Shown piece after piece: positions 16,892 to 62,864 of a stretch of 64,000 bases of DNA. The position numbers and the translations under genes are program-made. A model generated the notes under the pieces. That model ran no database searches. It had not been told where the DNA came from and saw only the letters and a program-made list of their open reading frames with translations. Every line of letters begins with the position of its first letter. The first letter of the stretch is position 1. Location: assembly GCA_031763025.1 (NCBI GenBank), contig JASSKH010000019.1, positions 8,844,250-8,908,249 on the forward strand, written 5' to 3'. This DNA comes from Macrocystis pyrifera (lineage: Eukaryota; Sar; Phaeophyceae; Laminariales; Laminariaceae).

Positions 16892-16896
16892 CTTTT

Positions 16897-20956: not shown

Positions 20957-21099
20957 CGCGAAGTTGCTGTACTGCTGCGCCGGGACGACCTCGTCGTTGT
21001 TAGCGCCCCCCCCGCCCTTTGTCGAAGCGGCGTCGTAGGTACTGCGTCTCGCCTCCTCTTCCTGCCGACCCCGCGTTTGTTGCTCACTTTGGCTGCTGT

Positions 21100-28188: not shown

Positions 28189-29145
28189 CGACCCCTCGAT
28201 GCGTTAACACATCGAACTGAACTGAATTTTGAAATTCAACTGTGGAACAATGTACTCGTTGCTTCTGCGTTACATGCCATACTTCAAAAAATGAACGCAA
28301 CAAGGCGATACTTGTTGCGATGAAAATATTCAACATAAACTACTGAGAGCTAGCTCATTCTTCTTGAATACCCGGGGGGTTACACAAAACAAGCAGATGT
28401 AAAATATCCAGCCCTGCTACTTTTCTGCACATGTTATGCAAGCTTAGCTATCACTCCAAGAATCATCAAACCGTGAACTATATTCCAGTCAGTTAAACGA
28501 CGAAGCAATACTAAATGTGCGCAGTAGTCTAAAACAGTGAATTTGTTCATCATTCCGCAACAAGAATAGTAGTGAACAAACTATTAACGTTCCTGCCGCC
28601 CGCAAAACAAACGAAAGAACATGTTTTTGATACTGCCAGCTTAACGCTGTAACAAGATATGCTGTTATCAGAGAGACATCCCCCTCGTGTATGCTAATCT
28701 CTTGTTTGGACTCATCTAGGTGGAAAGTTCTCCCGCCATACATCCTGAAGTTCCGGAGATGACGAACTCTTTTCAACTACACCTTCGAACCTAATGATTC
28801 GACTTGGTTACAATGCACCCTTACTTGGTTCTGACTTTATATAAAATCTTGCTCAACACCGGTCATTGTACTGCACTCTAGGGAAGATGGACGGGATACG
28901 CTACCAATGAATGCAAAAAATCCAGTGATCAGTTCGTTGACCCAAGGAAATGAATTTCTTATCCGCCCCGTACAAATTGAACATGCGACAGCCCACAGCT
29001 TCGGTAAGGGAGACAATACGGTTCACGCTTCCAGTAGCTTGACCTTGTTGGTGTAGACGTCGGTGGTCATCCGATGTGCTTGGTCCGTTTTTGTTTTTCT
29101 TAGGACTTGAGGCTCAACTTATCTTGAAGTTGGAGAGGTAGTCTT
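28189..29145. other. Interior of the copia-type element, nothing recognisable
   Basis: Between the left LTR and the RNase H-like fragment I recognise no domain. Short minus-strand frames (28489-28776) are unsupported. Confidence 0.45.
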
Positions 29146-31401: not shown

Positions 31402-32200
31402 TAGTGACGACTGCAAAAAAAAATCTCTCTGGGGCCGACGACCCTCTTGGAAATTTATCGACGTTCAGCGCTCCTTTGACAGATATCAGAATACTTGTCG
31501 GGAGTTAACTTCTATGCCGGTGTAGTAACGACTGTCATGTAATCTCTCTGGGGCCGACGACCCTCTTGGAAATTTATCGAAGTTCATCGCTCTTTTGACA
31601 GATAGCAAAATGCTTATCGGGAGTTAACTTCTATGCCGCTGTAGTAACGACTTTCAAGCGATCTCTCTGGGGCCGACGGTCCTCTTGGAAATTTATCGAA
31701 GTTCAGCGCTCCTTTAACAGATGGCAGACTATTATCGGGAGTTAACTTCTATGCCGCTGTTGCTCAGAGTGACTGAGGCTCATGATCCACGAAATGGACT
31801 ACACTTGACAGAGCTCCTTAACCCCAGCGGTGCTGTGGGTTGTGGCGAAGTTGTCCTTAACAGCGTACAGCAGAATCTTACTCGACGTGTTGATCGAGGT
31901 TTTTGTATTTTCTAGGCTCCCTCGCATTGGAAGGTCCTGTCAGAAACTGGTGAAGTCAGGGACTCCTTCAATGGACAGCTATCACGCTTGTCGGGAGTTT
32001 GCTTCTGTGCCACTGTTGTAGTGACGACTATGAAAAAAATCTTACTGGGCCGACGCCCTCTTGGAAACTCGAAGTTCAGCGCTCCTTTGACATATAGCAG
32101 GGTGCTTATCGGGAGTTGACTTCTATACCGCTATTGCTCAGAGTGACTGAGGCTTACGATCCACGAAATGGACTACGCTCGGCAGAGCTCCTAACTTTCA
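31402..32200. repeat. Minisatellite with about 123-bp unit and a higher-order copy
   Basis: The unit contains ATCTCTCTGGGGCCGACG, CCTCTTGGAAATTTATCG and TCGGGAGTTAACTTCTATGC. Three tandem copies start near 31402, 31525 and 31648, and further degenerate copies lie at about 31915 and 32020. A larger module (TGCTCAGAGTGACTGAGGCT...GGACTACRCT) at 31758 recurs at 32125. The array lies between the right LTR and the gag-like part, i.e. in the element's 5' leader. Confidence 0.8.
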
Positions 32201-32674
32201 GACGTGCTTGGTTGTGATGTGGAGTTGCTGGTGAGCAGCGTACAGCGGTTACACTCGAGTTTTGCTAGAGGTTATTGGTCCTCGTCTATGAAAAGACAAA
32301 GGGGAGCAGGTGAGATTTTCACAGCTCCTTACGCGGTGGTGCTCTGTGGGTGTCTCTATCGTAGTTATAGCAATTTGACTACAGCAGTAGTGAACGACAG
32401 CACTAGTAGAAAGCCCTACGCAGGACCCTCTTAGAAGCACGAGGTGTCCGTACCACGTGTCACCCGCGTTTCAACGAAGTGCGTAGACCTTCGATATTTG
32501 GTTCCTCTCGTCGTGGAAGAAGCTCCCTTTTTCGTACGTAGCAGCAGGTTCTTGATCTTGAAAAAGTCCAGTCCTCCTCCTGCTGTATAGCGAGCCAGTA
32601 GCAGTTTAGGGTGGCGGTCTTGGGCCACCGCTGCTAGCAGCGTGCCGCGTTTACGCGTTCCGAGGCTCATATCC

Positions 32675-33841
32675 TATTAGGTATGGCGATTGACGTGGGT
32701 ACCAGCGCGTAGCTGGTGTATACGTCGAGACTCGATTGCCGATGGCCGGTCAATGCACAGTCGATGTTCGAGGCAAACACGTAGTCACTGTCAGGTGACT
32801 TGTACGAAAAGTTTTTATAGAAGAGAAGAAGATGGTGTGGTGACCCCAAGCCACAGTGTCGATTCATTTGCTCAGCTGGAAGCTGATAAATGGTGAGCAA
32901 AAGTAGAGTGAGCTCAAAGGGGAGCGGTGCGCGTGTGCGCTCACGGCTCGAAACAAAGGATGACCCCTACAATTCGTTAAAAAACAAAAATAGGGAAATA
33001 CCCTTGCATTCAGGTCAATATAAAACAACACGGAGACTCGCGGTTCTACTGCTAAAAACTATATAACTTGGGGTACGTACTCATGACCCTCTTGTAGCCA
33101 ATGTGGTTACTTCAATCACAACAAAATGTATGCTACTGGTCCCGGCGGGATACTGAAGATACTCTGTCCATTATTTCCAGTGCGCACGTACCAGGTACTA
33201 CTGGCTGTGCATGTGCTGCTGTAGATTATGTACGTACGTAATACAGTACATCCACGATGCTGGTTGTTATTGAAACCTATTATGCAATGTGTACGAGTGC
33301 ACAGCAGTAGATATTGTAGGACTGCTGCTGCTGTGTACTGCTACTACTCACAGACTGGAAAACTGTCCGCTGTACTTAGAAATGCGTAAATGTATACCAG
33401 ATGACGCAAGTGTTATCGAGTGAACGACTATGACGGCTACTGACAAGTATCATCTCTACTGCCTCCTCCCGTTAAGCATACGCTTTCATACTCTGCGTTA
33501 CATGCTAAAACTTCTCCAAAAGAAACACATGCAACATCAAGTGGTGATGTTGCTATTGGGAACAAACACTTGTACGTAATGTACCTACATGAGTTCCAAG
33601 GATAATCAGTTGTACATGATGTACCTACCGCTTGAGATCCAAGGAGTGAATTCAACGCGTACAAGACATCGAAATAACCGAACATAGAACCGTTCTGTTC
33701 TTCTACTGTTGTGACACCTGCTTGTATGAGATGGGTGTGTACCTAAATTATGGTTGCTACAGGAGTACCTGGTAGCCCTGTGCTATGCAGCAGCGACTAG
33801 ATGATACTGGCTACTGCTGTAATAGGTGTCAATCCCTGATA
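32675..33841 (-). repeat. LTR of the copia-type element, right
   Basis: Begins TATTAGGTATGGCGATTGAC and ends ATCCCTGATA, followed by the target duplication CAAGG. Confidence 0.85.
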
Positions 33842-40040: not shown

Positions 40041-40092
40041 CCTAACCCTAACCCTAACCCTAACCCTAACCCTAACCCTAACCCTAACCCTA
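40041..40092 (-). repeat. Interstitial CCCTAA telomere-like array
   Basis: About 8.5 perfect CCCTAA units. It lies inside the first of two related blocks; the second (about 40545-40715) has no such array at the equivalent place. Confidence 0.9.
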
Positions 40093-44921: not shown

Positions 44922-45011
44922 ATAACGAAGTAGGGGAGCAATGTTCCTTGGACTCGGACTGCATATCGGGATGCTGCGGATCGCAAGTGTCCCCTACACC
45001 ATTGTGCCTAG
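44922..45011 (+). CDS. Cys-rich module exon 1, CC type (phase 1-1, 90 nt)
   Basis: Bounded by an acceptor with pyrimidine tract (CCCTGTTCTCG...CGAATAG) and the donor CCTAG|GTACAG. Both introns are phase 1. The module reads GEQCSLDSDCISGCC, then nine residues to a final Cys: C-x5-C-x3-CC-x9-C. This is the same spacing class as the exons at 49812 and 54023. Phase-1 symmetric exons can be duplicated, shuffled or skipped without changing the frame. No known domain name fits with certainty; it resembles small disulfide knots. Confidence 0.6.
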
Positions 45012-46094
45012 GTACAGTGTATGCAGGTTCTAGCGGCTGGTACCGCACACAGTCGTCCTAAGGTATATAGGATGGATTCGTTGTTGCAGCCACCTTGGTT
45101 GGAGTGCGTGCCAGCCTGTCGGAGAACGAACACTATATTAATGTCATCGCTCAAAAGCCTCCAAGCATGCTTTGCAGTAGTCATGGCGCCTTCCTCGGAG
45201 TGAGGAGGTTTCTGTCAGAGATATTGGGAGTATACTCCTTGTTGTGAGGATCAGCATTGAGTCACAACGAAACACGACGATCGAGCGCGCAAAATATCGC
45301 GACGCAGCATCAAGACCATTATGTTTCGCATAGCACCGGCGCGAATAAACCAAAGGGTGAACAACACGCTTTCAGTTAATATAGTTTTTGCTGCGGATAA
45401 ACGCCTACCTGGTACTTCATGAATCGAAGAGGATGAAGCTTGTACACTAGCTTAGGAGATGAGTTGTACGTTTCCCAGCAGTGAGGTTGCGAGGTTCGAT
45501 TCCCGGCGTCGTCACCGCTACTGGTGTAAAAAACAAAGTTCTTGACATCTCAGACCATACCGGGGTGAGGGTAGAGTCTCGGAGACGGATGCAAGTATGT
45601 CGTATTTAGTGGACCCGAAAGTGTGCGTTTAACTAGGCCAGTAAGGCTATACTATATAATTTATATTCCAACCGAGTCTGACGCACAAGCAGATTCCATC
45701 CGACGCATAGTTACGGCAGGGACGCAACTGCAGTCATCTTGAAGTTCCTTCCTCACTTGAGGAGCTGTATGCATCACCCAAAAAACGTATTTATGAAACG
45801 TGCATGCTTAATTAACCCGAGGCGCAACCCCGTGGCCTGATGTTATATTGAAATATAGTGATAATGAAAACGATATTGGGTAGTTGCTGGGGCTGTGAGT
45901 TGGGTTCCTCTAAGTTACCCGTTACATATTTGTTGGCTAAGGGTTTCAGTTGTTGCAGCGGTGCCAACAATCCAACTATTCTGTGTACTTGGGTTTTCTT
46001 GCACGTGGAAAAGCATGCTTCGCGCGGGGAACGCATTTTCCCGCGGTATCAGGAGCGTACATCCGCGCGAACAGAGAGGGGTGTACTATAACTC

Positions 46095-46331
46095 ATGGCG
46101 CATGAACCCATCGTCACCGCCGGTGCTGGTGCCGATGGCAATGTCGTAGGTACTAGCAACGTTGAACCTGGCCCGTCGAATGACCACGGCGGCGATGGAA
46201 CCTGCGTCGATCAAGGGGTGGTTCCGATGCCTCTTTCTCGCCCGGGCGCGGGCGACAACGATGCGGTTCGCTACCGTTTAGTGAACGAGCGCCGCCTTTC
46301 CAAGCCCCCCAAATCGCATCACTGGGTGTGA
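46095..46331 (+). pseudogene. Small frame ending in a BED-finger-like start, possible hAT remnant
   Basis: The 78-codon frame starts with MAHEPIVTAG and ends SKPPKSHHWV before a TGA. If that codon were Trp the text would continue KYFTVY, which recalls the start of a BED zinc finger as found in hAT DNA transposases. No Cys/His continuation is visible. It lies in a predicted intron of the modular gene. Alternative: a chance frame. Confidence 0.2.
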
Positions 46332-46556
46332 AAGTACTTCACGGTGTACGTGAGGAGGCGTAGTCAACATCGCCGTTTGCGCGTTTGTAGTATATTGATT
46401 GCATCATTTTTTAGTTTTGTTACAATCCGATAAGACGAATTTTACAATACACGCTTTTCAACACAAACAAAAGTGCTAACCTTTTCTATCATGTTGCTTG
46501 TGTGTGAAAATAAGCCAAACAGTGCAATGTTTGTCTCCGGCAGGCTCTCCTGGGTC

Positions 46557-46558
<2 letters not shown>

Positions 46559-46618
<60 letters not shown>
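46559..46618 (+). repeat. Homopolymer run of 60 G
   Basis: An uninterrupted G tract between CTCCTGGGTCTT and ACTTGTTTGG. It may be real or a base-calling or assembly artefact. The poly-Gly and poly-Pro frames across it are meaningless. Confidence 0.9.
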
Positions 46619-46621
<3 letters not shown>

Positions 46622-46811
46622 TGTTTGGTTCGCTTCTCTCGCCTAACAATGCTAGACTAATCCGGTGGCTAGTGTCAGCCCACAAGTAGGGTAAAGTCAG
46701 TTAGGCACCTAGATCGGAACCCCAGCCAACTCACAGCCCTCGCAGTTGCTCGGTTGAGAAGCCTCGTATGACATATATTGTTTTCCCCTAATAGTGGTAC
46801 CCCTGTCGCAG

Positions 46812-46916
46812 CACCTGTACTGCCCAACATCCTCACAAGAGGGCACGCGGAAAGGATGTCTGGCTTGCCGACGGAGTCAAACGAAGTCCGATGCGTGGTG
46901 TGTGCGCCGTGCCTCG
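46812..46916 (+). CDS. Candidate exon of the modular gene (phase 1-1, 105 nt)
   Basis: The acceptor TACCCCTGTCGCAG and donor CTCG|GTAGGA leave one frame open that is phase 1 at both ends. The product ends NEVRCVVCAPCL, a compact Cys cluster, but its first two thirds lack Cys, so it is less convincing than the other modules. A second frame through the same stretch is also Cys-containing but has mismatched phases. Confidence 0.35.
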
Positions 46917-47944
46917 GTAGGAGAGTTAATACGAAACATCTTCCGACTTGATAGGGCTCTTTCACTGCGAAACTACACAAACTTTTTGCAAATCCAGCTT
47001 GCGCGTTTTCATTCTTGAAACTGTACGTACATGAAATATTTGCCTACGAGAAGCCCATTCGATATTTCATGGAGACACGCGTAGAACTATTTTTAAGCGG
47101 CGGTTTGGGAGAGACATACGGACTTGTGCGCCACAACACATGGGAAACGGGTCGGTGCCCCCTTCATCGCAGCATGACGCGTGCTTGAGACTTTAGAGAG
47201 GTAGTAGTATCAGATGGTTGGAACATTATGCGACCTTGTGACGGCCGCTACGTCCGTCAGCGCGTGTTTAAATGCGAGACGTCGTGACCTATGTAGAGCT
47301 TGTGAATGTAGACGGTTGGAATTCCCGTAGCGGGTAAATCACGACAACAGGCTGATGTTGCCCATTATTGAACAGAACGGCATGGAGAAAATCTCTGACC
47401 ACGCCTTCCGTCTTAATGCCGTGAAATGTTGATAGCTTGACACTAATGCATCACTTTCCTCTTCGCTGTTCGCCCAACATTATTACATGCTGCTTTTTCC
47501 TTGATCGGGATGTTGACAAGAGTGCAGGGCATCTAGCTTTTCGCCATAGCTATGAGAGAATGTTGGCATGGGACGGACTGTCGGCCAGTGCAACAGCCCG
47601 TAGAGCATATATACCCATAGTGCGTGAATATGTCCGAGATGGGCAAGTGACGGCCACCCCCGCTTCGATCATTTCTCGTCTCTGCATTTGTCCTTCGTTT
47701 TGTTTCGCCCTTTGGACCTGTCATATCAATATTATTTCCACAGTGGCCATATAAGCGTCTTGACAGACCGTCTCTTTCCCTACTCTTCACCCGTGAGCGT
47801 CACACACACTTTGGTGTCATCTGTGCCATCTCTCTCCACAGAGACAGACCCTTGACACACGCATAGTTCTTTCAGCGTGGAGGTACTTGCGCTCAATAGC
47901 TCCTTTCGATGTATTGACACCGCTTCGTCGTTTGCCTTTGACAG

Positions 47945-48037
47945 ATACGAGAACACATGGCCCCGGAGAGGCTTGCAGCACGATTGATGGTTGCGACTGC
48001 CTGGTTGGAAAGTGCGATGGAGGTTTCTGCTCGGAAG
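47945..48037 (+). CDS. Cys-rich module exon, CDC type (phase 1-1, 93 nt)
   Basis: Strong acceptor GTCGTTTGCCTTTGACAG and donor GGAAG|GTGTCG, both phase 1. The module contains PGEACSTIDGCDC and then GKCDGGFC, giving C-x5-C-x-C-x4-C-x4-C. The exon at 52127 has exactly the same Cys spacing and the same PGEAC and DGCDC words, which argues strongly that both are real and arose by exon duplication. Confidence 0.65.
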
Positions 48038-48547
48038 GTGTCGTAACCCCCGTTTCCAGTGGTATCTAAGCTTATTGTACATACCCGTGTGTGATAATCG
48101 GAAAATTACAACGCATGTGCCTGGGCTTGTGGTCTTTAAACATCCCTTCCGTTATGTCTGTACAAATAATAAGGTAGTGTTTATTTGGAACGAACAGCTT
48201 CTACCAGGGCAGCAAAGGCTCATTTTCATTTAGTGAGTGGTATCGATCACATGGTAGTCACCGGCGATACTTTTTCTCTGTCTCGAGCCTGTGTCTGGCG
48301 TTGTATCGTGAACATCACCAAATATAGTCACACTGCATGAACTCGCGACGATCAAAATCTACTACCTGGTATCCGTTTCCCCCACGACGTTGCACAAGTA
48401 TACATCGCTCCGACGGCCTACTTCGGCGGCCTGAGTCTTTGTTCAATATGAACCGTGGATATTCTTGCACGTCGTTCAGAGGAGCGCCGAATAGCCTCAC
48501 ACCAGTATTGTTCCCGCTCTCCGGCTTTGCGTTTTTTGAACTTGCAG

Positions 48548-48577
48548 GTGCTTCTTCATCTACAAGTATGCTCGAAG
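48548..48577 (+). CDS. Possible 30-nt micro-exon of the modular gene
   Basis: A strong acceptor (GCGTTTTTTGAACTTGCAG) is followed after 30 nt by GAAG|GTACGA. The frame is open and phase 1 at both ends, encoding ASSSTSMLE. It could be a short linker exon. A 30-nt exon is easy to find by chance, so confidence is low. Confidence 0.2.
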
Positions 48578-49726
48578 GTACGAGGGTGTTGTCACGATAT
48601 GTTTCATGTAGAAGTCATCACATCCGTAAATGAAGCGCATGGGAACACGCCAGTACACACCAAATTACGACTTTATCTGGTTGTTCGCTCGTTATATTTC
48701 AGGCCATCTCCTGTAACGTTACATACAGTACTTCTGAGTGATGTGTGGTCGAATGTCTCTGTACTCGCGGTTTGCAGTAGTAGTCCAAAGGCTCGTTGTT
48801 CGTACTCCTTCTGCACATTTAGCAGAAACTATAAAATGTCAGGTGAGACCCGAGACTGGGCCGCACGAAGGAAGGCGGTTCGCCATACCCCACAGAATTC
48901 ACCTGTTTCCGACCGTGTGCCGCTTGACAATCGTCAAAGACGTATACAGCTCTGTCAAGAAATATTTGGTCCGAACGAATACTTATGAACAGCCCAACGG
49001 TCACTACATTTCAAGGCAGGTACCTATGCAGTAGTTACTTTAGAAACTGAATTTCACACTTTGGCTTAGGTTGTATTTCGGTAAGCCGTTGATAGTTGAC
49101 AAACATGTCGCCGATCAACGCTTCAATCAACAACACGAGATCATACACTGTAGGAGGAGTGAAAGCACGAGGAAATTGATCAGGATGGGCAACACATACG
49201 GCAACCAGTAGATACAAAAAACCACAAGGGGAAAGCAACAACATTATTCCATCCTCTCTCGTTGAATATTCCCAACAGGTGAAGCCCTCTCATCCCAACT
49301 ACTTCAAACGTCGTAAAATACCGCAGTCGCTTTGTTCCATGTGTACCAATCTGGTTACCTGTTGTTGTGTTTTTACGGTCATTCTAAGTTTGCACAGTCG
49401 GTCGTGATGAACACACAGTCAGGGCGACACGAAGTAAAGTCACCATCTTAGTGCTGACATGACGGCCGCCCATTCACTAAGAGTGCAGCACAACTTCCCG
49501 TCGCCTCAATAAGCATTGGAACACCAGCAAGCACCAAATACTTATTGAATTTGAACGCACCGGGGACGAGTGTACTGGGATGACCTCTCCAACCCAACCA
49601 CGTACGTGCGTGCATAGAACGCTCTGCCTTGAGATAATTTTCATTACGTCAGTACTACTTGGCCGTTGCTAACGTGCCTAACATGGGAGAATGTTACATG
49701 AACGTCCACCCGCTCCTCGTCTCTCC

Positions 49727-49764
49727 GCCTGCCTGCCTGCCTGCCTACCTGCCTGCCTGCTTGC
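49727..49764 (+). repeat. GCCT microsatellite serving as pyrimidine tract
   Basis: About nine tandem TGCC/TACC units lie upstream of the exon at 49812 and form most of its pyrimidine tract. Length changes here could alter splicing. Confidence 0.7.
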
Positions 49765-49811
49765 TTTCGCTCTGTCTCGGTGCTTCGATTCGTGTACTGT
49801 ACGCCTTAAAG

Positions 49812-49880
49812 TGTGCGTATTGGACAGGGATTGCGATTCGGGATGCTGCTCGTTACTGCTGGATACGAACGTGTGCCTCC
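49812..49880 (+). CDS. Cys-rich module exon, CC type (phase 1-1, 69 nt)
   Basis: The first AG after the long pyrimidine tract is CCTTAAAG; the donor CTCC|GTAAGT is close to ideal. Both edges are phase 1. The product CVLDRDCDSGCC plus eight residues and a final Cys has the pattern C-x5-C-x3-CC-x8-C, matching the exon at 44922 (CSLDSDCISGCC). This is the shortest of the convincing modules. Confidence 0.6.
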
Positions 49881-51085
49881 GTAAGTGCTTGGAGTGTGGC
49901 GAGACAAAAACATGTATGGGGCTGTAAATGAACCCCTCACCCATCCCTCGACAGGGACGCTCCGTCGTGCAACGTCGTACGACAGAGAATGCCGTAAAGA
50001 GCATGCTGAGCCGCGCGTGGCAGTCGAAAGCTCTCACGAATATTTCGGAAGTCGACATAGGCATCATCGACGTGTATTCATGCTACCTATTGTGTGCGGT
50101 GAATAGCCGGGATATTATTCCCCGGCCTGTCGGGCAGGGACCAACGGGAAGATTGGCCTACGACGAGAGCTATACTGTTATAAGTATTACCCTGGGCTGG
50201 GTAATTGATCGATGTTTCACCCCTATATAGCTCAGTAGGTAACACCTTCACATTTGGCGTTGTCGGCAAGGCAAAAAGGGTCGAAGAATGTGTTCACGGA
50301 TGGTGTGTCACGGTGAACGTCGACGACAAAGTCGTCGGTGGGGGCCGGGGCGGAATGGTATCCGTGGGGCATGACTGCATTGACGCACTGCCGCCCTTTA
50401 CTAGTCTTGAGTAGCAAGAGTGTGTACTTGTTTAGTGTATATAGTAGAACCCGATTGTAGTGGTAAGGGAATGTAATGCAGGTACTATTGGAACTGGCTA
50501 GGAATACAGCTTCTTTTGTTCAGTAAACTTCTTCTTGTGTTGTCGCACTATTCCGCATGACGAGATAAGGGAGCTGTCGAGAGAGTGAATCGATTGGGGC
50601 TTTATTCAAGGCACAAAGCCCACTCCGCTCTCCTTCACCTGCTGGACGGGTAAGACAATTCTCGGAGGAACTTTCTTCAGGGGCATGTACACTCTCTTCT
50701 ATCGGCTATCCTAACCATTGTACTGCAGAGGAAACTTCAGAGCCCCGGGAATACTCTTGGGTATTCAGGGCCTTGATACTGCGGGCTGTGTCCTAACCAC
50801 TTTTATTGCGCGCTACTATAGCATATCGCATTAGTCCACCCTGAATAGTCGTATATGCAGACCACACGACGGTCAAAGAATGACAACGGAGTTCATCCGA
50901 TAAAAGACCGGCAAGGGAAGTCGAAGAGCGACTACTCGAAACAATGAAATGAGGCCATAGATTTCCCGACACCTCGTAGTGAGGCCTGGGAGTCAAGAGT
51001 ATTCCCGGGGTTCTGATACTACGGGCTGTATCATAACCACTTGTATAGCCCGATACGATATCATATCACAATACGTTGATGCAGT

Positions 51086-51330
51086 TTAGGGTCATTCTTA
51101 TCGGAGACCTTTTTTTCCATGATTTCCATGCATTTTTCGCGCAAGTTCTTAATCTTCCAGATTTTCCAGATTTTTTTCCAAATATTTGAAATTCAGCAAA
51201 CATGATTTTTTTGCTTGTAGAGAATTTCACGAATAGTGACAGAACGCCTCCGTTTATTCATACATATCTCCCCTTATTTCCGAAATTTTGAAATTTTGGA
51301 AAAAAAACTCTCCGATAAGAATTAATCTTA
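51086..51330. mobile_element. MITE with CTTATCGGAGAG inverted ends, copy 2
   Basis: Left end TTCTTATCGGAGACCTTTTTTT pairs with right end AAAAAAACTCTCCGATAAGAA (written over two halves). The interior TTTCACGAATAGTGACAGAA is inverted relative to copy 1. It sits in a predicted intron of the modular gene. Confidence 0.75.
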
Positions 51331-52126
51331 GACAGTATGCGTGTGCGACGCCCGATACAATAGGCCTAGCACTTTTCGGACAACCGCATTCCTGAGAGAT
51401 GGAGAACTACTGAACGTCATTTGGTTGTTTGTACTAGCGTTCTCGTGACGCTTCGGACCTACTGTACGTAGGCCACCAGATTTCTCATCGGATTAGGTGT
51501 TATTTATTGGCCTTTTTGTTCCGGACGAGATGTAGAGCTGCTCAAATTAGGATCTTGAGCGAAAATTACAGGTGCATCACTACCGTAGTATTCATCGTTC
51601 ATTCACTCCTTGCCTTGATACAACTGATCGTGTGAGGATTGCCTGTGCTACTTTAGGCAGATCGACCAGAAGCCGCTCGTTGAGAGCTTTTCGGTTGATC
51701 TTCGACGAAACCACTTGGCCATTGAAGTACACCCTTAAGTTGTAGGCTAAGCGAATTGCCAATTTTTCATGTATTACTAGTTTGATTAATCACCCTCTAG
51801 AGCATTTGATAGAGTGGGAGTAGAAATACTCGTGACACTTGTACTAATTTGTCTTTCTACATGCCAAAATATGGCACGATTAAAGTTTACATCCGCGAAA
51901 TACATATCGGGGCTTGTACCGTTTCCATGGGGTGTAAACTGCAGTGGTGATGCCTGTACGAGAGGTGGTACTACTCCCGCCTTTGAGGAATCCCGATCCA
52001 TCCGCCGCCCGTCTGAGTGGCTAGCGGTGTATTTTGAATATGCAACATACCATCCGTTTTTATTTCGGTCTCACAAGCGTAGACGGCGCCGTGAACACAC
52101 GGCTTGATGTCCATCTATTTCTGCAG

Positions 52127-52216
52127 AGAAAGCTGCCCTGAGTCCTGGGGAGGCGTGCCGTACGGGGGACGGGTGCGACTGCTTCCATGGATTGTGTATC
52201 AGCGGTATTTGTGCAG
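52127..52216 (+). CDS. Cys-rich module exon, CDC type (phase 1-1, 90 nt)
   Basis: Textbook acceptor (CCATCTATTTCTGCAG) and donor (TGCAG|GTGAGG), phase 1 at both ends. The module contains SPGEACRTGDGCDC followed by HGLCISGIC, with Cys spacing C-x5-C-x-C-x4-C-x4-C identical to the exon at 47945. Six residues of linker precede it. The combination of ideal splice sites, conserved phase and conserved module makes this the anchor exon for the gene model. Confidence 0.7.
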
Positions 52217-54022
52217 GTGAGGCACGATCATTTCGCGCGTATAAGAATACGTACGAAGTTCGACGTTTGTGGATGGACGACCAAATGCTGAAGTCATCTC
52301 CCGACCGATGAGACACAGGGATTTGAGCGTTTTACTAAAAACGTCTACTCAGCGGAAACACTCCCCAATATCCATACAGCACCTGGCTAATGGGATGTCT
52401 GCTTCGGGTCGCGTGTACAATGCTTGTCGCATATGGTATTTAGATGATCGGTAGAGCTCAAGACGTTAGGGGTTACTGCTGTAGGTCACAAATAGTTTGT
52501 GCCCCTTCCTTCCTAGAATAACTGGCGATATGCCTCGGAAGCTGAAAGCAACTATGTTATGGAAATTCGTACCAGGAATGAACTACCACCCTCACACTAC
52601 AGAAACTCAAGTCAGCATTAAGTATATATTTATCCCACCCATATCCAACATAAATATCGCTGACACCGCCGCGTACGTGCTTCATCTGTGCACATACACT
52701 ACAAACGATATCCTTGATGCTATAGTCGGCTTCCGAAAGCATGTGTTAGATATAAGCGCGATCTCTCGGGCGTGCCGTCCTTAGGCGTTTCGGCTCGGGT
52801 GTTGGGCTTAGATCGGGGGTGGCAGGGGCGAGGGGACGCAGACACCGGGAAAAGCTCCACCTCGCGGCGCGGATGCGAAATAGGAGAGGCGAGGGTGCGG
52901 GGCAATTGAACGTTGGCGTGGAAATAGGGAGGTCAAGGTGCTTACCCCGTCACGAACAAAAGCCCGGCCTCGCATCCTCAGAGCGGACGTGATAGTTGGT
53001 GCCGCGGTTTGGCGGGCACTGGCTGAGACAATGAGGGTCATAGGGAGGGGGGGAGACCTGTTTAGCGCTTACCCGTCGCGTGGTCGTCCAAAGAGGAGCG
53101 TCGAAGCAGACTGACATGTAGTTTTCACTAATAAAATATCGAGTGAGGATTGCTTGAGAAATCTCAATCGAAACAGAAAAACTCGATACATCGTTCGCTC
53201 GGGCGATCGCGTCGTCACGTGGATCGGACCCGTCATTATGAAAAGGTATTCGATCCTCTGGAAACAAAACCCTGCTATCCAAGCGCGGAAGGCGCAAGCG
53301 TACAGCGAATAAGAGCTTCCTGTTGATTCCCGCCCCAGCATATTGCGTGCTACTACTGCATACTATTGTAGTGCTTCTTCTTCTTCTTCTCTTTTTTCTG
53401 CTGTATCATACACCAATAGGAACCATAAATAGTATTTGTTAGTGGTAGTGCCGTCCTGTGCCGCTGGGTTTCGCCATCGCTCGGCCGACACGTTCACTCG
53501 CCCCTCGCCTGCGTCCGACCGTTCGAGATTTGGTCGCTCGGTACTTGTTTCGCAGGATTAGACCACTTGCCTCGTTCGTGTGCTGTCGCTGGCTTGCTCG
53601 ATCGACTGCGGCTCCGCTCGTCCCGCTGCTCTTGAGTAAAGGATAGAGTGCATGAAGTAGCAGGGCGAAATCCAAAGTATAGATCTCGGTTGGCGAATGC
53701 CTCGTCGCGTTTCGCTGAAAATGCACTAAGCTACCCTAAGGCACAGTGCAGCTATCTGTCCAAAGCAAAATGATGTGCAGCCCCGGACACACCGCGTTAA
53801 AAATTGCATCGCCTCGGTATGTCGTGGTATTGCTTCACTGGGATCTCCTCGTGACGATATTACTCGCTTACTCGCCGAATACAACACTCAAGACGGTCGC
53901 CTATAAACCCCTATACCCCACACTAAATCACAACGACTGACGACTGCCTAACGGTGGTAAGACTACATAATTTTGTAACATCTTTGCCGAACGGAGCTCA
54001 ATCGTTTTTCTGCCACTTACAG

Positions 54023-54172
54023 CGTTGCTTCGTCGGGCGGTTGTCCATCTGCTGCGATATCTGGAATTATCTAACGAATCGCCTGGGACAGACTGCGAGG
54101 ACGATAGCGACTGCCCAGGAGATACTGAATGCTGCGTGGATGGGACATGTTTTGAAGACATCAGCGAATGCG
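54023..54172 (+). CDS. Cys-rich module exon, CC type with Leu-rich linker (phase 1-1, 150 nt)
   Basis: Acceptor GTTTTTCTGCCACTTACAG and donor TGCG|GTGAGA are strong; both phases are 1. After a 25-residue Leu/Arg-rich linker the module reads TDCEDDSDCPGDTECC and then a Cys after four residues and another Cys at the exon end: C-x5-C-x5-CC-x4-C. It shares the DSDC...CC core with exons 44922 and 49812. Confidence 0.65.
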
Positions 54173-55144
54173 GTGAGATATCCGCTCTAAACACGATAGA
54201 GATGGTTGGAGTTTTGGTGTTGCTCGGTTCGTCGATCAAAGACGGTAGCGATTATTGCCGATCTCTGCTGTACAGAAATGCATTGCCTGCCACCCCACCC
54301 AGGAGGAATTATTTAGGCGTTGCCGACTCATACTCGTGGCTGACCGCGTGATTCTTTTCGAAACAAGAATCCTGCGGTAGTGTTAGTTTTTGAAATCCCG
54401 CGGCTCTCAAGCTAGAACAAGGAAAAACAGCCACCTACGATGGCCGCAATACGCCCCCCTTTCTTCACACGACCTTGCGAAACGCAACAGACCGAGCCTT
54501 TAAAACAAAACACAATTGCAAGCCGCATGTTCGGCCGCTGTAAACTTGGCCATGATATACTTCGAAGTACATACACACTTAGCGTGACGACCTCTCGTCG
54601 AGATTTTAGTGGGGCAAAATACCAAGCAGATAAGAGAAAATCGAAATTCGAACATTCTTTTGTGTATTCCGTTTGAAGTGCGTATAGTTCTTTCGCCGGG
54701 CTCAACGTCCGATGCGGCGATCATCGGAGGCTTGCACGCTAGCTGTCTGCATCGCCAAAAGACGGAAACGTTTTACCTACAGCACCAGCCATGGGTTAGT
54801 GATGCGTGCTACGATGGAGGTGCGCCTACTATTTTCCTGAGGCTCCTCACTCGGAGATCTCTATACCCCACCCAAACCCTGACCTAAATTGTTTTTTTTG
54901 CAACCTCTATGACCAATACGAGGGCATAGGTATCTACAACAAAGCACACTGTCGCAGTGACATTGGGGTAATTCTTGAATTGAGTTTGTTCATTATAAAG
55001 TCAGAAACAGTTTGGCGAAGTATCAGCAGTGCTACTCCTATCGTAAAACCACGTCAGTTGGTAGTGGCGAACTCATGAGACGCCCGCGAATAAATTTGGC
55101 AGCGGGAATTTGTTTAATATCGAGGCATTTCGACGTATTTCAAG

Positions 55145-55297
55145 CGGCTTGCACGTTGTACTCCAGGCACAGACACGAGTATGGAGAGAAGCGTCGAGGT
55201 TTCCGCTCGCAGTGCGTGTCAAGTTGTGTGATACAATGCGATTCAGGGCAAACATTTACACTTTGCCAGAGCTTGGTGTGCAGACCGTCAAGTGTTG
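55145..55297 (+). CDS. Candidate Cys-rich exon (phase 1-1, 153 nt)
   Basis: The acceptor GACGTATTTCAAG is acceptable and the donor GTTG|GTTTAA is weak. The frame is phase 1 at both ends and carries QCVSSCVIQCDSGQ then TLCQSLVC, i.e. five closely spaced Cys after an early Cys. It lies at the expected distance between the exon at 54023 and the terminal exon. The weak donor is the main doubt. Confidence 0.4.
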
Positions 55298-55835
55298 GTT
55301 TAAACTAGAGTCATCCGTGTCACATGGAGGCGGGTCCGGTCCAGTTTGACTACAGTACATTTTGTACGGTGGGACAAATGATAGACCTTCCTGACGCCTT
55401 TATGGGACAATCGACTATACATTGCAATCGATTTTCGTGGCCGATGCAATTCGGGGCGGTATGCTTGAACCAGCCCGTACATTATTGTATTTGAGTCTTC
55501 AACTCAGCGGTAGGGGGCGTCGAACTTCCAAATCGCAGACAAGACCCTCAAGTAGTTCACGACAATAGTAACACAGGGCAGAAAACGGTGAACGTACTGC
55601 GTAGTAAACACCATGCGATGGACGCTATGCACAGATATCATGCGAAGTATAGTGTTTCGACAACCGGGCATCCGAAATATCCACGGAACTGTAAATTGTT
55701 GATGGTTGCCAACAAAATAGTGCATAAGTGTGAATTACGGGGATGGCCCGTGAACGAGTTAAATACATTGCCTATGCCCGGCCTGGGTGACCTTGCGTCT
55801 GCGTACTAAGTGCGTACTCTCTCCCCATTTACTAG

Positions 55836-56818
55836 GTTTGCATCTAACACCGACACCAGCCACGTCGCCCGCGACATCACCGACATCATCCCCATCAGCC
55901 AGATCGCCTACGCTAGCACCGTATCCACCCCCAACGAAGTCGCCCACGCCAGCACCATCCAAGCCGCCGACACTACCCCCAATTCCAACAGCATCCTCAT
56001 CCAAGTCGCCGATGCCAACTTCGATTTTGATAGCATCCCCAACCAATTCTCCCAATCCGGCACCGACAGCACTCCCATCCAACTCGGCCACGCCAACCCC
56101 GGTGCCGACAGCAACCACAACCACATCTCCCCCTACACTCTCTACCCCGGCGCCGACAACACTCCCATCCAACTCGGCCACGCCAGCCCCGATGCCGACA
56201 GCAACCACAACCACATCTCCCCCTACACTCTCTACCCCGGCGCCGACAGCATCCCCATCCAACTCGGCCACGCCAGCCCCGATGCCGACAGCAACCACAA
56301 CCACATCTCCCCCTACACTCTCTACCCCGGCGCCGACAGCACTCCCATCCAACTCGCCCACGCCAACCCCGATGCCGACAGCAACCACAACCACATCTCC
56401 CCCTACACTCTCTACCCCGTCACCGACGCTAGCTCCAGCTGAGACTTCCATGCCAACGCCGGCCTGGTCACCCCCGCCACCACCCCAGTCTCTGTGGTCC
56501 ATCGTGGCCGCCTCGGTAGTTGGAGTGCTGTTGTTTGGTGTGCTTGTGCTATTGTGTGTTAGGGTGAAGATGCACTGCGCGGCTCGGAACGTAAGCGTTC
56601 GACAGTGTCTGCAAATTCTGTTAAGTAAAGGCTCGTTCTGGGGTGCCATGGTTGTGTTGTCAGGGATTTTCGTTGCCCTCAATATTCTGGACGTTTCGTC
56701 GATGTGGGGGATCGTGAGGGTTTGGGCCGCCTTGGTTTTATGGTTTGTAGTCGTGGCGTGGTTTGTGGTGTTCAAAACTGGGACACCGGCGACGATGTTG
56801 TTGCACAATCTCCCTTGA
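55836..56818 (+). CDS. Terminal exon: Pro/Thr/Ser-rich stalk, three membrane segments, stop
   Basis: The acceptor CCCATTTACTAG is preceded by TACTAAG, a good branch-point match, and opens the frame in phase 1, consistent with the upstream modules. The first 200 residues are Pro/Thr/Ser/Ala-rich (TPTPATSPATSPTSSP), including four 30-residue repeats (PTATTTTSPPTLSTPAP core) encoded by near-identical 90-bp DNA. Three hydrophobic segments follow, about 56498-56565, 56630-56695 and 56704-56775, with short polar loops (CVRVKMHCAARN after the first). The frame ends at a TGA at 56816. A mucin-like stalk beneath Cys-rich modules suggests a cell-surface or wall-linked protein. The opposite strand is also open, but only because of the repeats. 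Confidence 0.65.
56071..56420 (+). repeat. 90-bp tandem repeats coding the stalk, about four copies
   Basis: Copies start at 56071, 56161, 56251 and 56341 with exact 90-bp spacing. The last is incomplete. Differences are few (for example GGTGCC/GATGCC and CTCGGCC/CTCGCCC), so expansion is recent. The unit keeps the reading frame. Confidence 0.95.
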
Positions 56819-57622
56819 TGTCCTACTTTATGGTGCCTTCCAGCTTGACCACGACGATTGTGAAGCCTGATTGAGTACTTGCGAACATTTTCTCCTTTAT
56901 CGACACTTTCCCTCCGTTGTTAAATTCGTTTTGCGAGGCACGTAAGCAGGGAGGGGTAGACTGTCCGCCACGATTTTGCCGCCTGATTGTGTACTGTCTC
57001 TTGTTGACACGTTTAAGATGTACCCATCAGACACGGAAACAACATGACGACCAGCTCGTTTGCCGCAGAAGCACATACAACGAAAATAGGAGTCACGCAG
57101 TCGATAAAGCCCGCGTTTGGTCCGAACACAACGACAAACCGTGTGCCCTCTGGACCACGGGTCCACACGCCCGTCTCCGCGGTGTTTAGTGGTTACGCCA
57201 CAGCGACGACTGAAAATCAGGCGCCACCCGATAAAAGGAGACAGTCGACCCCAAGGTCCGTTACCGTAGACCGATGCCGGCACGTCCTACATGTGTCTTT
57301 GGACGAGCTTTTCCTGCTTCCAAACGTATTGTCCACCTGCTACCACCCAATTTCGAACCTCTGAACAAACGGCTCGCCTTGAGGCCGCGAGTCGGGGCGT
57401 GTAATTTCAGTTTTTTTTTTCGTATTTCCCCGATTCTAGGTTGTTAATAGTCAGGGTTTTGACAAGGAGAGACCTATGTTCACGATCGCACCTAAGGCAG
57501 ATAGCATCGTTGTGTCGAATGTAGATTTCAATTGATGCCAGGACCGAGCTCAAGTGGCATTGGATACGAGTCCACCAGCTGAAAATCAAATGTTCCAGAT
57601 GTGATACACACGGGACAAATAC
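56819..57622. other. No gene recognised
   Basis: Region between the modular gene and the next candidate. Frames at 56897-57283 (minus) and 57044-57364 (plus) have no motif. No AATAAA is obvious just after the stop at 56816. Confidence 0.4.
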
Positions 57623-58392: not shown

Positions 58393-58822
58393 TACCCTCT
58401 TAGGCTTCAGGTCGTCTGGTGATGACTGTCCTCGAGTCGTATGACTAGGGCTGGTCTTACACGCCTGGCCGATGACGATCTTTAGAGGCTAGCGGGAGAA
58501 GCTAAGGTTAGTCAGCCCTGGCGGCATCGATGACGAAGATGTGTAAGACGATGTGTGTCAGTTGTTAATTGTCGATCTCGGGACTTGTTGATGTTTTATC
58601 ATGGTGAACTGGCCAGAATTTATTTGAAGGGGGGGTGAAGACGAGTGGCATCGCAGGGGGATTGCGCGGTTGTTCTCGTGCCACGGGATTGTCAACATAT
58701 CTCGGCCCAACTTGCATTATACGATCAGCTGTCAATTTTTGAAAAATAATCATTAAATACTGGTACGCCAGCTGTGAGTTCGACTGATTAAATAGTTGAT
58801 ACTCAACTTTGCAAGCTGCGTA
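58393..58822 (+). repeat. Dispersed repeat family A, right copy
   Basis: Same-orientation partner of 811-1230, ending in the CTGTGAGTTCGACTG sub-repeat at about 58770. Confidence 0.8.
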
Positions 58823-60164: not shown

Positions 60165-60379
60165 GACAAAGACCGACCTGGGCTGCCGGCTGTTGTTTGC
60201 GACCAGTGCACGGACCAGCACTTGATCAAGAACTCCAGCAAAAACGTGGCCTTCGCCACCTGCAAGGATCTCACGTGCGTGGTGGCGGGATCATCCTGAC
60301 AGGGCAACCGACTGCGAGTTCTGTGCTCGCCCGATCAAGGAAGGGACTGTCTCGTACTCCCTCGAGACTGCTGACAGTG
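60165..60379 (+). CDS. Zinc-finger-like exon Z1, with a frame change inside
   Basis: One frame carries VVCDQCTDQHLIKNSS and AFATCKDLTC (C-x2-C...C-x4-C). From about 60301 a second frame carries DCEFCARPIKEGTVSYS and ends at the ideal donor CAGTG|GTGAGT in phase 1. The two frames differ by one shift, so either a sequencing error, a small intron or a real frameshift lies between. The second frame joins exon Z2 in phase, giving a C-x2-C...H-x-C finger. The style is that of PARP-type or related treble-clef zinc fingers. The 5' end of the gene is not identified. Confidence 0.4.
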
Positions 60380-60544
60380 GTGAGTGTCTTATGTCTATTG
60401 TGCATGCTGTATGTTGCCAGTACGTTTTTTTGGGGTTTTCAATTGCTTTTTCGCATACAAACTTACGTCCGTTTATTTTTTTTTTAACTCATCCATGCTC
60501 GTTCTTTTCCCTTCGTGCGTTGCGTCGGCTCCTCTTACACACAG

Positions 60545-60636
60545 TGCACGCGAACGCGCACGTGCACAACTGCTTGCAGGCCGTGAACGAAGGAACGGAG
60601 GATTCAGCTGTCGCCGTCACCGCTGCACCGAACGAC
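60545..60636 (+). CDS. Zinc-finger-like exon Z2 (phase 1 to 0, 92 nt)
   Basis: Acceptor GTCGGCTCCTCTTACACACAG (split here) and donor AACGAC|GTGAGT are strong. The frame supplies HANAHVHNCLQAVNEG, the His/Cys half of the finger begun in Z1, then an acidic Ala-rich linker. The incoming phase 1 matches Z1, and the outgoing phase 0 matches Z3. Confidence 0.45.
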
Positions 60637-60639
60637 GTG

Positions 60640-62150
60640 AGTGCTGCTGCTACTGTGGTGCATTTTCGGTGCATGCACACGATTTCTGTGTGTACATGTT
60701 TGGGTGACCCCACATGCTCATTTTGCTCGTTTTCTGCTGCCGCTGCTGCTGCTGCTGTCAGCGCCACGCCATGAGTGCTGCTGCTGCTGTGCACCTGCTT
60801 CTCCTGTACACTCGCTGCTGCTGTAGTGCTGCTGCGTTGTTGCCGTGCTGTGCACCTGCTGCTCCTGTGCACTTGCTGCTGCTGTATGTAGTGCTGCTGC
60901 GTTGTTGCCGTGCATCATGCTGGAAGCGTACATATTTTCGGATCGTCAATTCCGTAGGTTTTGCGATGGCGGCATACCAGGGTACATGCTTTTTTTCTTC
61001 CTTATTTTCATATCGTTGCTATGCTGCTGCTGCTGCTGCCAACGCTGCTGCCAACGCTGCTGCCAACGCTGCTGCCAACACTGCGGCGATTCGTTGCAGC
61101 TTCTGCTGCTGCTAATGCTGTAGCTGCTTCTGCTGCTGCTGCTGCTAATGCGCTGCCGCAATATCCACTGAATGTTCTTATGTACTCGGATTACTGTTTT
61201 TTCTTGGTCGTTTTTGTACCCAAATGGTTCCTTTTGATACGTGAACAGATATTTTTGTCGTTTTGCTCCTGCATTTTGCGTACGTACTGCAATTTCTCGT
61301 TTTTGGCTTCGTTATTTTCATATATATCGTTGCTATGCTGCTGCTGTGGTGCTGCTGCGTTGTTGCCGTACATCATGCTGCACTTGTGTGTGTACATATT
61401 TCGGTATCGTCAATGGAATTCCGTAGGTTTTGCGATTGCGGCATACCAGGGTACATACTTTTTTTCTTCCTTATTTTCATATCGTTGCTATGCCGCTGCT
61501 GCCAACGCGGATTATTGTTTTTATTGGCCATTTTTGTACCCAAATGTTTTTTTTTATACGTAAAAAAATGTTTTGGTCGTTTTGCTCCTGCATTTTGCGT
61601 ACGTACTACTTTTTCTCGTATTTCGTATCGTTGCTATGCTGCTGCTGCGTTGCTGCCGTACAGCATGCGGAGGTGGGTCTATAGTGAGGTACCAAAAATA
61701 CTTTTCGGACGGCCTCGGGGTACATACTTTTTTTCTCCCTTCTTTTCATATCGTTGCTTTGCTGCTGCTGCCAACGCTCTGGCGATCCGTTGCTGCTTCT
61801 GCTGCTGTTGCTGCTCTGCTTTTAGTGCTGCCACAATATTCACTGAATGTTTGTATGTATTCGGATAATTGTGTTTCCTGGTCGTTTTGTGGCGCTGCTG
61901 CGTTGTTGCCGTACATCATGCTGGACATGATTTGTGTGTCTATTACACTTAAACTTGTGCGTGTGTACATATTTCTGTATCGTCAATGATTTTTTTTGTG
62001 GTGCTGCTGCGTTGTTGCCGTACATCATGCTGGACGTGATTTGTGTGTGTACTGTACTACACTTGTGTGTGTACATATTTCTGTATCGTCAAGGAAATTA
62101 CGTACTTGCTGCTTCTGCTGCTGCTGCTGCTGCTGCCGTCGTATAGCAAG
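60640..62150. repeat. Complex TGC-rich repeat array in the predicted intron
   Basis: Runs of TGC alternate with a longer unit: GCTGCTGCGTTGTTGCCGTR, CATCATGCTG, GTACATATTTYSGTATCGTC and, in two copies (60900-61070 and 61345-61510), GGTTTTGCGATKGCGGCATA and CCTTATTTTCATATCGTTGC. Further copies of the first part lie at 61890 and 61998. Confidence 0.8.
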
Positions 62151-62285
62151 CGATTACGTACTGCTGTTGTGCCGCTGTAGAGTAGTACAAATAATGAACT
62201 CTGCCCCCCACCCCCCTTCCCCCTCCCCCGCCATTCCCTGCACGCCACTCCCGCCCCGCGCACCCTATATGTTTACTTCGACCAG

Positions 62286-62864
62286 GTCCGTGGCAAGTGC
62301 TACAACTGCCGCCTGACGGACTCCACCATCAAAGACGGAGACATCATCATCAAGCGCAAAAAGACTCCCTTCCATTTCGCCTGCTCCAGGGCTTCGCGGA
62401 ATTCCGAAACAGTACGCCAAGCAGATTGTCGCTATCCAGGACGAACGAAAGGAAACAAATTGTTTCCTACATTTCCCAAAATCACGATTATTTCTTCCTA
62501 CACATATCCGACGGGTTCAACAGCGAACAGATCCACATTCTGGGCCTCCCGCCTCGTTACTACAGCAGATTGGAAGACTATTTACATATCATGTCTCATC
62601 CAAACTCCTATGCTGGCTACATCGAAATCGCGGCCGCCCAGCAACTATCAACATTTCCATAACCGTTGTCGTTGCCGGCACTGCTGCTTTCTCTCCTGTC
62701 CCAAACCTTCCTTTAAACAACAGCCTGTATGTTGTATATCATCCACATGCCAAGCACTACTCCACTCTCTCCCCACACTGATGAAAGATGTTGTTCTTAT
62801 CATTAGACGAATGTCATTCTTATTCTTGCGTCACCCAATCTTACGTTTCACATTACATTCATAA
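62286..62864 (+). CDS. Zinc-finger-like exon Z3, probably terminal
   Basis: After a pyrimidine-rich acceptor (TATATGTTTACTTCGACCAG), a phase-0 frame encodes GKCYNCRLTDSTIKDGD and KKTPFHFAC, i.e. C-x2-C-x22-H-x2-C, a PARP-finger-like CCHC pattern. The frame stays open to a TAA at 62862, directly followed by AATAAA. The Ser/Thr/Cys-rich tail beyond residue 45 is not convincing as protein. A possible donor ACA|GTACGC at 62411 would end the exon earlier. The finger itself is the supported part. Confidence 0.45.
   Translation, partial: VRGKCYNCRLTDSTIKDGDIIIKRKKTPFHFACSRASRNSETVRQADCRYPGRTKGNKLFPTFPKITIISSYTYPTGSTANRSTFWASRLVTTADWKTIYISCLIQTPMLATSKSRPPSNYQHFHNRCRCRHCCFLSCPKPSFKQQPVCCISSTCQALLHSLPTLMKDVVLIIRRMSFLFLRHPILRFTLHS

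What the first reader, a model, noticed from the sequence alone, without database searches (positions are those of the whole stretch)
44922..56818. A gene built from phase-1 symmetric Cys-module exons on a mucin-like, three-pass membrane base
At least five short exons (44922, 47945, 49812, 52127, 54023) each have good splice sites, are phase 1 on both sides and have lengths divisible by three. They encode two recurring Cys patterns: C-x5-C-x-C-x4-C-x4-C and C-x5-C-x(3-5)-CC-x(4-9)-C. The terminal exon at 55836 opens in the same phase and adds a repeat-built Pro/Thr/Ser stalk and three hydrophobic segments. Introns are all about 0.5-2.3 kb. Independent agreement of phase, spacing and Cys pattern is hard to get by chance. 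I know of no named family with this architecture. Symmetric exons would allow frame-neutral skipping, so the ectodomain could be diversified by alternative splicing.
Basis: partly seen in the sequence, partly recalled or inferred. Interest (0 to 1): 0.8.

Follow-up and report, generated by a model that had tools for sequence, protein, structure and literature searches.

The report
Paired-exon cysteine modules on membrane stalk
A stretch of eukaryote-like DNA holds what looks like a real gene for a cell-surface protein, whose outer part seems built by duplicating a pair of short exons that together carry one disulfide-rich module, set on a Pro/Thr/Ser stalk with three probable membrane segments; no relative was found and the species is unknown.

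Summary
Two strict Cys patterns (taken from these exons) match six times in six frames of 64 kb; five are these exons, against 0.26 expected. New: exons 1+2 and 3+4 are two copies of one 53-60-residue, 10-Cys unit, 53% identical, all 10 Cys kept, with constraint on the peptide (weak for exons 1/3 taken alone) and unlike introns. The unit's Cys order equals that of the Dickkopf C-terminal, colipase-type domain; homology is not shown and most of the profile score comes from the CC exon alone. Exons 1-4 hold 5 Cys each, so exon pairs, not single exons, are the natural unit of duplication or skipping. The last exon adds a Pro/Thr/Ser stalk and three hydrophobic segments. Splice sites, phase and Cys count alone are not above chance; introns are 1.7-2.9 kb; no start exon was found. 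No relative, transcript or species was obtained: splicing, fold and function are inference. In a non-animal host it would bear on the published view that exon shuffling of extracellular modules is metazoan.

The parts
44922..45011 (+). Exon E1, 90 nt, phase 1-1, CC-type half-module C-x5-C-x3-CC-x9-C (5 Cys)
47945..48037 (+). Exon E2, 93 nt, phase 1-1, CxC-type half-module C-x5-C-x-C-x4-C-x4-C (5 Cys)
   Evidence: first Cys codon 29 nt after the acceptor, as in E4; a phase-0 AG at 47842 scores higher
49812..49880 (+). Exon E3, 69 nt, phase 1-1, CC-type, paralogue of E1 (5 Cys); a better-scoring alternative donor, also phase 1, would end the exon at 49913
52127..52216 (+). Exon E4, 90 nt, phase 1-1, CxC-type, paralogue of E2 (5 Cys)
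54023..54172 (+). Exon E5, 150 nt, phase 1-1, CC-type with six Cys (C-x5-C-x5-CC-x4-C-x6-C), sub-threshold WAP/EB match
55836..56818 (+). Terminal exon: Pro/Thr/Ser stalk with 90-nt (30-aa) tandem repeats, then three hydrophobic segments, stop at 56816-56818
56057..56416 (+). Four copies of the 90-nt stalk repeat, about 96% alike
56489..56815 (+). Region of three separate hydrophobic segments (about residues 222-240, 266-284, 292-310 of the exon product)

Best explanation
A real multi-exon eukaryotic gene on the + strand (5' end not found) encodes a cell-surface protein. Its ectodomain holds two tandem 10-Cys modules, each made of a CC-type and a CxC-type exon, followed by a six-Cys half-module that can close on itself. 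These sit on a long Pro/Thr/Ser-rich, probably O-glycosylated stalk anchored by three membrane helices with a short cytosolic tail. The second module arose by duplication of a two-exon, phase 1-1 unit, which keeps the frame. Each module is proposed to fold like a Dickkopf/colipase-type domain: two hairpin subdomains, one per exon, with the intron in the linker and one disulfide between the exons (this pairing is carried over from recalled connectivity of that fold, not from a call). The likely job is binding or adhesion at the cell surface or wall, with the stalk as spacer; no enzyme domain was matched in the part examined. Shown here: exon structure in the sequence, Cys frames, paralogy, constraint on the peptide of exons 1-4 taken together, hydrophobic segments. 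Inferred: splicing, joining to the terminal exon, disulfides, fold, glycosylation, topology, function.
For: Five of six pattern matches in the window lie in these exons, 0.26 expected. E1E2 and E3E4 are 53% identical. Over 49 codons NG86 gives dN 0.42, dS 1.82; LWL85 0.39 and 1.23. Neutral simulation: 0 of 20000 runs keep the observed identities or the 10 Cys; on the 39 non-Cys codons 22 of 20000 keep as many identities. E1/E3 share a 30-nt stretch at 80%, E2/E4 align along the exon, and no repeat links the introns. E2 and E4 both start 29 nt before their first Cys codon. Best site chosen blind to phase is phase 1 at 9 of 10 edges. Cys spacings 5,3,0,9,11,5,1,4,4 and 5,3,0,8,11,5,1,4,4 against Dkk1 CRD2 5,4,0,8,9,16,1,5,17. 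hhalign score against Dkk1/2 CRD2: 1 of 600 column shuffles as high, none of 600 over 40 or more columns. Dkk4 CRD1 consists of two like subdomains (PMC6078440, passages and section 9). Terminal region: codon-position bias above all 103 overlapping windows from introns and 2.5 kb upstream; three hydrophobic segments in 43 of 5000 shuffles, open frame in 57 of 5000; single-sequence AlphaFold gives helices 219-249, 254-283, 289-314 and a short 316-322.
Against: No transcript, no relative: IMG/VR gave 88 and 6 pattern matches, GTDB genomes 54, none confirmed by tblastn; phages and plasmids none; none of these is a eukaryote collection. No start/signal-peptide exon found. E1/E3 alone show little constraint (NG86 0.45 against 0.70, LWL85 0.46 against 0.54), and synonymous or third-position excess in non-Cys codons is unremarkable (3170 and 2680 of 20000). 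The Dickkopf likeness reaches no database threshold; hhalign probability is 8.8%; the CC exon alone already scores 18.2 of 18.7, with higher probability (16.9%), the swapped exon order scores 16.9 over 9 columns, the reversed query 18.58 over 15 columns, and each of three sets of 200 shuffles, one with Cys columns fixed, had one as high; Dkk4 CRD1 gives nothing unusual (20 of 600). So the profile test does not show that the two-exon unit as a whole is Dickkopf-like. The antisense strand of the terminal exon is open for 386 codons. E1 and E3 acceptors are weak. The terminal-exon model has mean pLDDT 47.
Confidence: 0.5

Rival explanations
1. Same gene, but each exon is an independent small EB/WAP/knottin-like half-module and there is no two-exon colipase-type domain; the alternation CC, CxC, CC, CxC, CC is only the order of duplication.
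For: Sub-threshold Pfam matches are to single exons: E5 to EB (E 0.0026) and WAP (E 0.015), E4 to EB (E 0.017); E1, E2, E3 alone match nothing. Exon 5 has six Cys; its model's Foldseek hits are a conotoxin and squash trypsin inhibitors at E 0.8 or worse. The CC exon alone gives most of the Dickkopf profile score.
Against: E1-E4 each have an odd number of Cys, so isolated half-modules would leave a free Cys; the duplicated unit is the pair.
Confidence: 0.28
2. Two neighbouring genes: a secreted Cys-rich protein from the five exons and a separate stalk/membrane gene from the last exon.
For: The junction E5 to terminal exon rests only on phase, strand and splice sites.
Against: E5 donor is at the 99th percentile and the terminal acceptor above it, and they agree in phase. 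I did not look for a promoter or start of the terminal exon's own.
Confidence: 0.12
3. An ordinary animal extracellular modular protein: the window is metazoan, and class 1-1 disulfide modules are the usual building blocks there. (This is about the host and can be true together with the others.)
For: All domain types used in metazoan exon shuffling were class 1-1 according to PMC8001218 (passages); the species is unknown.
Against: G+C about 50% and CpG observed/expected 1.03 are unusual for animals (general knowledge); a kelp genome with 48.7% G+C and mean introns of 1.2 kb (PMC6507550, passages) fits as well. No module passes its Pfam cut-off.
Confidence: 0.25
4. Decayed exon remnants, or chance.
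For: No start exon found, weak E1/E3 sites; loose exon scan not above chance.
Against: Cys frame far above chance, all 10 Cys kept between paralogues although 59 of 147 aligned bases differ, no stop inside any exon.
Confidence: 0.06

Closest known systems
Dickkopf C-terminal Cys-rich domain (CRD2) and the colipase fold
   Same: Ten Cys in the same order (C, C, CC, C, C, CxC, C, C), seven of nine spacings within two residues; two-subdomain build described for Dkk4 CRD1
   Different: Two loops much shorter (5 and 4 against 16 and 17); no significant sequence match; here the two halves are separate exons, in tandem, on a membrane stalk, while Dickkopfs are secretory proteins (PMC6078440)
WAP four-disulfide core (PF00095) and EB module (PF01683)
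   Same: Exon 5 matches the second half of the WAP profile (positions 15-34 of 41) and part of EB, sub-threshold
   Different: The first two WAP Cys are absent (WAP Cys count recalled); scores below curated cut-offs
Brown-algal LRR-ROCO genes (and NB-ARC-TPR genes, seen only as a cited title)
   Same: One repeat unit per short, same-phase exon of 3n length; exon duplication; alternative transcripts reported (PMC11378527, passages)
   Different: Those exons are 72 bp and phase 2 and encode LRRs of LRR-ROC-COR proteins; here phase-1 Cys half-modules in a membrane protein
Metazoan class 1-1 shuffled extracellular modules
   Same: Phase 1-1 disulfide modules in an extracellular protein (PMC8001218, passages)
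   Different: Here a full module would span two 1-1 exons; only local duplication is seen; species unknown
Ectocarpus IMMEDIATE UPRIGHT Cys-rich family
   Same: Cys-rich protein family named for an alga (title in a reference list)
   Different: Its Cys/His repeat (recalled, no call) is unlike these patterns

Membership tests
Dickkopf CRD2 / colipase fold | Ten Cys in the order C, C, CC, C, C, CxC, C, C | tested here: met
   Both copies; spacings
Dickkopf CRD2 / colipase fold | Significant sequence or profile match | tested here: not met
   No Pfam or PDB sequence match; hhalign prob 8.8%; 1 of 600 shuffles as high, but reversed query nearly equal and CC exon alone gives most of the score
Dickkopf CRD2 / colipase fold | Disulfide connectivity and fold | not testable with these tools
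   The spliced module is not contiguous in the DNA, so it was not handed to the structure predictor
WAP (PF00095) | Eight Cys (recalled) and score above the curated cut-off | tested here: not met
   E5 has six Cys; 16.0, 14.6 and, in the joined ectodomain, 20.6 bits against 20.8
EB module (PF01683) | Score above the curated cut-off | tested here: not met
   Best 18.2 bits against 24.3
Class 1-1 exon modules | Phase 1 introns on both sides and length 3n | tested here: met
   as splice prediction, not transcript; a complete module would need two exons
Class 1-1 exon modules | Same module in other genes (shuffling, not only duplication) | tested here: inconclusive
   No other copy in the window by the strict patterns; host genome not held
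Brown-algal LRR-ROCO exon arrays | 72-bp phase-2 LRR exons and ROC-COR domain | tested here: not met
   Exons are phase 1 and not LRR; no LRR or GTPase match at E up to 1 in three + frames of 30-57 kb; features from PMC11378527
Three-pass membrane protein | Three membrane-spanning helices | tested here: inconclusive
   Five overlapping hydropathy candidates making three separate segments; three long helices at block pLDDT about 50-72; no topology predictor available

The most novel reading that the evidence does not exclude
A non-metazoan (perhaps brown-algal) lineage independently evolved class 1-1 exon modules for a cell-surface recognition or adhesion protein, with each disulfide domain split into two exon-encoded, separately duplicable subdomains, so that exon pairs are the unit of duplication and of splicing; this would break the published restriction of shuffled extracellular modules to Metazoa.
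Probability: 0.25. Interest if true: 0.78.

Novelty: new variant of a known kind. Interest (0 to 1): 0.5.

Why it matters
PMC8001218 (passages) treats exon shuffling of modules as restricted to Metazoa, says all domain types used were class 1-1, and calls the reason for class 1-1 mysterious; brown-algal LRR exons, phase 2 and in ROCO proteins, are already a reported exception (PMC11378527, passages). A class 1-1 Cys-module gene outside animals, with an intron inside the two-part domain, would let the class 1-1 question be tested in an independent lineage. It would also give a concrete prediction: Cys parity makes exon pairs, not single exons, the splicing unit. If the host is an animal, the gene is a modest new member of a familiar kind.

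Tried and rejected
Start exon: ATG plus hydrophobic core plus phase-1 donor in 34-44.9 kb gave 7 candidates; the best-looking one (42650) lies in a TGTTA/TAACA-rich stretch and was rejected by eye. Pfam over three + frames of 30-44.9 and 44.7-57 kb, stops read as X: a weak WAP match at E5 (E 0.048) and a weak SUIM_assoc match (E 0.39); the - strand was not scanned this way. Further Cys exons in 34-57 kb with at least 4 Cys, phase 1-1 and usable sites: only the five known loci.

Relatives: IMG/VR with the paired module and with the membrane region, GTDB genomes, phages and plasmids by tblastn, NCBIfam: nothing. PDB sequences: none for the pair; weak squash-inhibitor, elafin and three-finger matches for E5 (7 at E up to 10, best 0.027); Foldseek of the E5 model: 24 at E up to 10, best 0.82. 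The joined pair also gave a weak EGF_STAB1-2 match (E 0.29).

Dickkopf test: see Best explanation; the comparison with Dkk4 CRD1 was rejected as evidence (20 of 600 shuffles). Stalk repeats as selection evidence: rejected, 5 of 7 variable columns are first codon positions. Species: own genome not held, no tRNA or Rfam match; only composition is suggestive. A methyltransferase-like segment that I thought I saw in the retroelement ORF was not confirmed.

In one search the seventh query was a hand-made join whose exon-5 tail was out of frame, with X letters; its empty result is not counted, and repeats it in frame. Paper searches for such a gene: (listings only); nothing matching was seen, in this library. 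Zambounis et al. 2012 was not held and is known only through citations.
Full report
What is there. The window is eukaryote-like: no own genome is held, there is no tRNA or Rfam match, there are LTR-type retroelements, G+C is about 50% and CpG observed/expected 1.03. The five internal ones are 90, 93, 69, 90 and 150 nt, free of stops and phase 1 on both sides. Introns by subtraction are 2933, 1774, 2246, 1806 and 1663 nt.

Is it more than chance. The patterns C-x5-C-x-C-x4-C-x(3-5)-C and C-x5-C-x(2-6)-CC-x(3-10)-C, written from these exons, were run over six frames of the whole window: 6 matches, 5 of them these exons; 100 order-2 Markov resamplings gave means of 0.02 and 0.24 and maxima of 1 and 2; a looser third pattern gave 16 against a mean of 5.2 and a maximum of 10. 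For each exon all AGs and GTs in the open frame were listed and scored with generic weights: the best site, chosen blind to phase, is phase 1 at 9 of 10 edges. Against the finding, a loose search for phase 1-1 exons with 5 or more Cys finds 6 loci on the + strand and 6 on the - strand, so symmetry and splice sites by themselves prove nothing here. Exon-1 sites and the exon-3 acceptor are mediocre.

Paralogy and selection. Joined at the predicted junctions, exons 1+2 and 3+4 give peptides 53% identical with all 10 Cys aligned. E1 and E3 share 30 nt at 80%, E2 and E4 align along the exon, and no repeat links their introns. Over 49 codons there are 59 nucleotide differences; NG86 gives dN 0.42 and dS 1.82, LWL85 0.39 and 1.23; E1/E3 alone give 0.45 and 0.70 (NG86), which is little constraint, and E2/E4 alone are saturated at dS. 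Random placement of 59 changes never kept 10 Cys or 27 identical residues in 20000 runs. Since the Cys were what drew attention, the test was repeated on the 39 non-Cys codons: 22 of 20000 runs reach the observed 17 identities, while third-position and synonymous excess are unremarkable (2680 and 3170 of 20000). E2 and E4 both begin 29 nt before their first Cys codon. The five exons joined show codon-position bias (chi-square 19.6, p 0.003). Together this is the best evidence that the peptides are translated and under constraint.

What the module may be. The pair has spacings 5,3,0,9,11,5,1,4,4 and 5,3,0,8,11,5,1,4,4 between its 10 Cys; the Dickkopf-1 C-terminal domain has 5,4,0,8,9,16,1,5,17, the same order with seven of nine spacings within two residues. 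Dkk4 CRD1, whose top structural neighbours are colipase folds, consists of two subdomains of like structure joined by a central loop, and its C-subdomain resembles inhibitor cystine knots (PMC6078440: passages and section 9). In the window each half would be one exon and the intron would fall in the linker. Profile comparison with Dkk1/2 scores 18.7 over 44 columns; 1 of 600 column shuffles reaches the score and none of 600 spans 40 columns. Against it: hhalign gives a probability of only 8.8%; the CC exon alone scores 18.2 over 12 columns, the CxC exon alone 14.9, and the two exons in swapped order 16.9 over 9 columns; the reversed query reaches 18.58 over 15 columns, and each of three sets of 200 shuffles has one as high; Dkk4 CRD1 gives nothing unusual (20 of 600). 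So the profile test speaks at most for the CC half, and the case for the whole unit is the Cys order. No family or PDB match reaches threshold. I say it may work like such a domain; I do not file it there. Exon 5 has six Cys and a sub-threshold WAP/EB match; its single-sequence model (block pLDDT 75-86 in the Cys part) has only weak Foldseek hits, a conotoxin and squash inhibitors first.

Cys parity. Exons 1-4 have 5 Cys each, exon 5 has 6. Skipping one of exons 1-4 keeps the frame but leaves an odd Cys; skipping E1+E2 or E3+E4 does not. No splicing data exist here.

Membrane part. The terminal exon product is 326 aa: a Pro/Thr/Ser-rich stalk with four 90-nt repeats about 96% alike, then hydropathy candidates that make three separate segments, which AlphaFold makes helices 219-249, 254-283 and 289-314, with a short 316-322, at modest confidence. 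The 327 nt of this region show codon-position bias above all 103 overlapping windows of equal size from the introns and 2.5 kb upstream; 43 of 5000 shuffles have three such segments and 57 of 5000 are open. The basic residues between the first and second segment suggest stalk outside, loop inside. The antisense frame is open over 386 codons, so openness itself is weak evidence.

Mechanism. Most likely a surface binding or adhesion protein with disulfide modules on a glycosylated spacer; duplication of a two-exon unit extended it. In the closest described case, brown-algal ROCO genes carry one 72-bp phase-2 LRR exon per repeat, with exon shuffling and alternative transcripts (PMC11378527, passages). 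PMC8001218 (passages) treats module shuffling as restricted to Metazoa and says all domain types used were class 1-1. Kelp-like G+C and intron size (PMC6507550, passages) are compatible with this window but prove nothing.

Limits. No start exon, no relative in the collections searched, none of which is a eukaryote collection, no transcripts, no species.

Noticed in passing
16430-25131 (-): LTR-type retroelement: end repeats 96% alike 8402 nt apart, ORFs with RVT_1 and RNase H-like matches. A stretch of the ORF after RNase H looked to me like a C5 methyltransferase without its catalytic Cys (motifs recalled); Pfam and PDB searches did not confirm it.
   Followed up: partly
27032-33722: Second element with roughly 1-kb direct end repeats 96-97% alike, about 5.64 kb apart, with short tandem repeats inside
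   Followed up: no
7621-9456: Long inverted repeat, reported as four arm pairs 92-96% complementary, nearest arms 1072 nt apart
   Followed up: no
40041-40092: 8.7 perfect copies of CCTAAC, the complement of the TTAGGG-type telomere unit, inside the window
   Followed up: no
46559-46618: Run of 60 G in the first intron
   Followed up: no
55759-56919 (-): Antisense strand of the stalk/membrane exon is open for 386 codons
   Followed up: partly
1171, 58764, 59050 and 59173: Interspersed repeat of about 85 nt in four copies, near both ends of the window; 811-1170 also resembles 58393-58757
   Followed up: no
60226-62660 (+): Possible multi-exon gene with C-x2-C pairs amid CTG-rich sequence; Pfam matches far below their cut-offs
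   Followed up: partly
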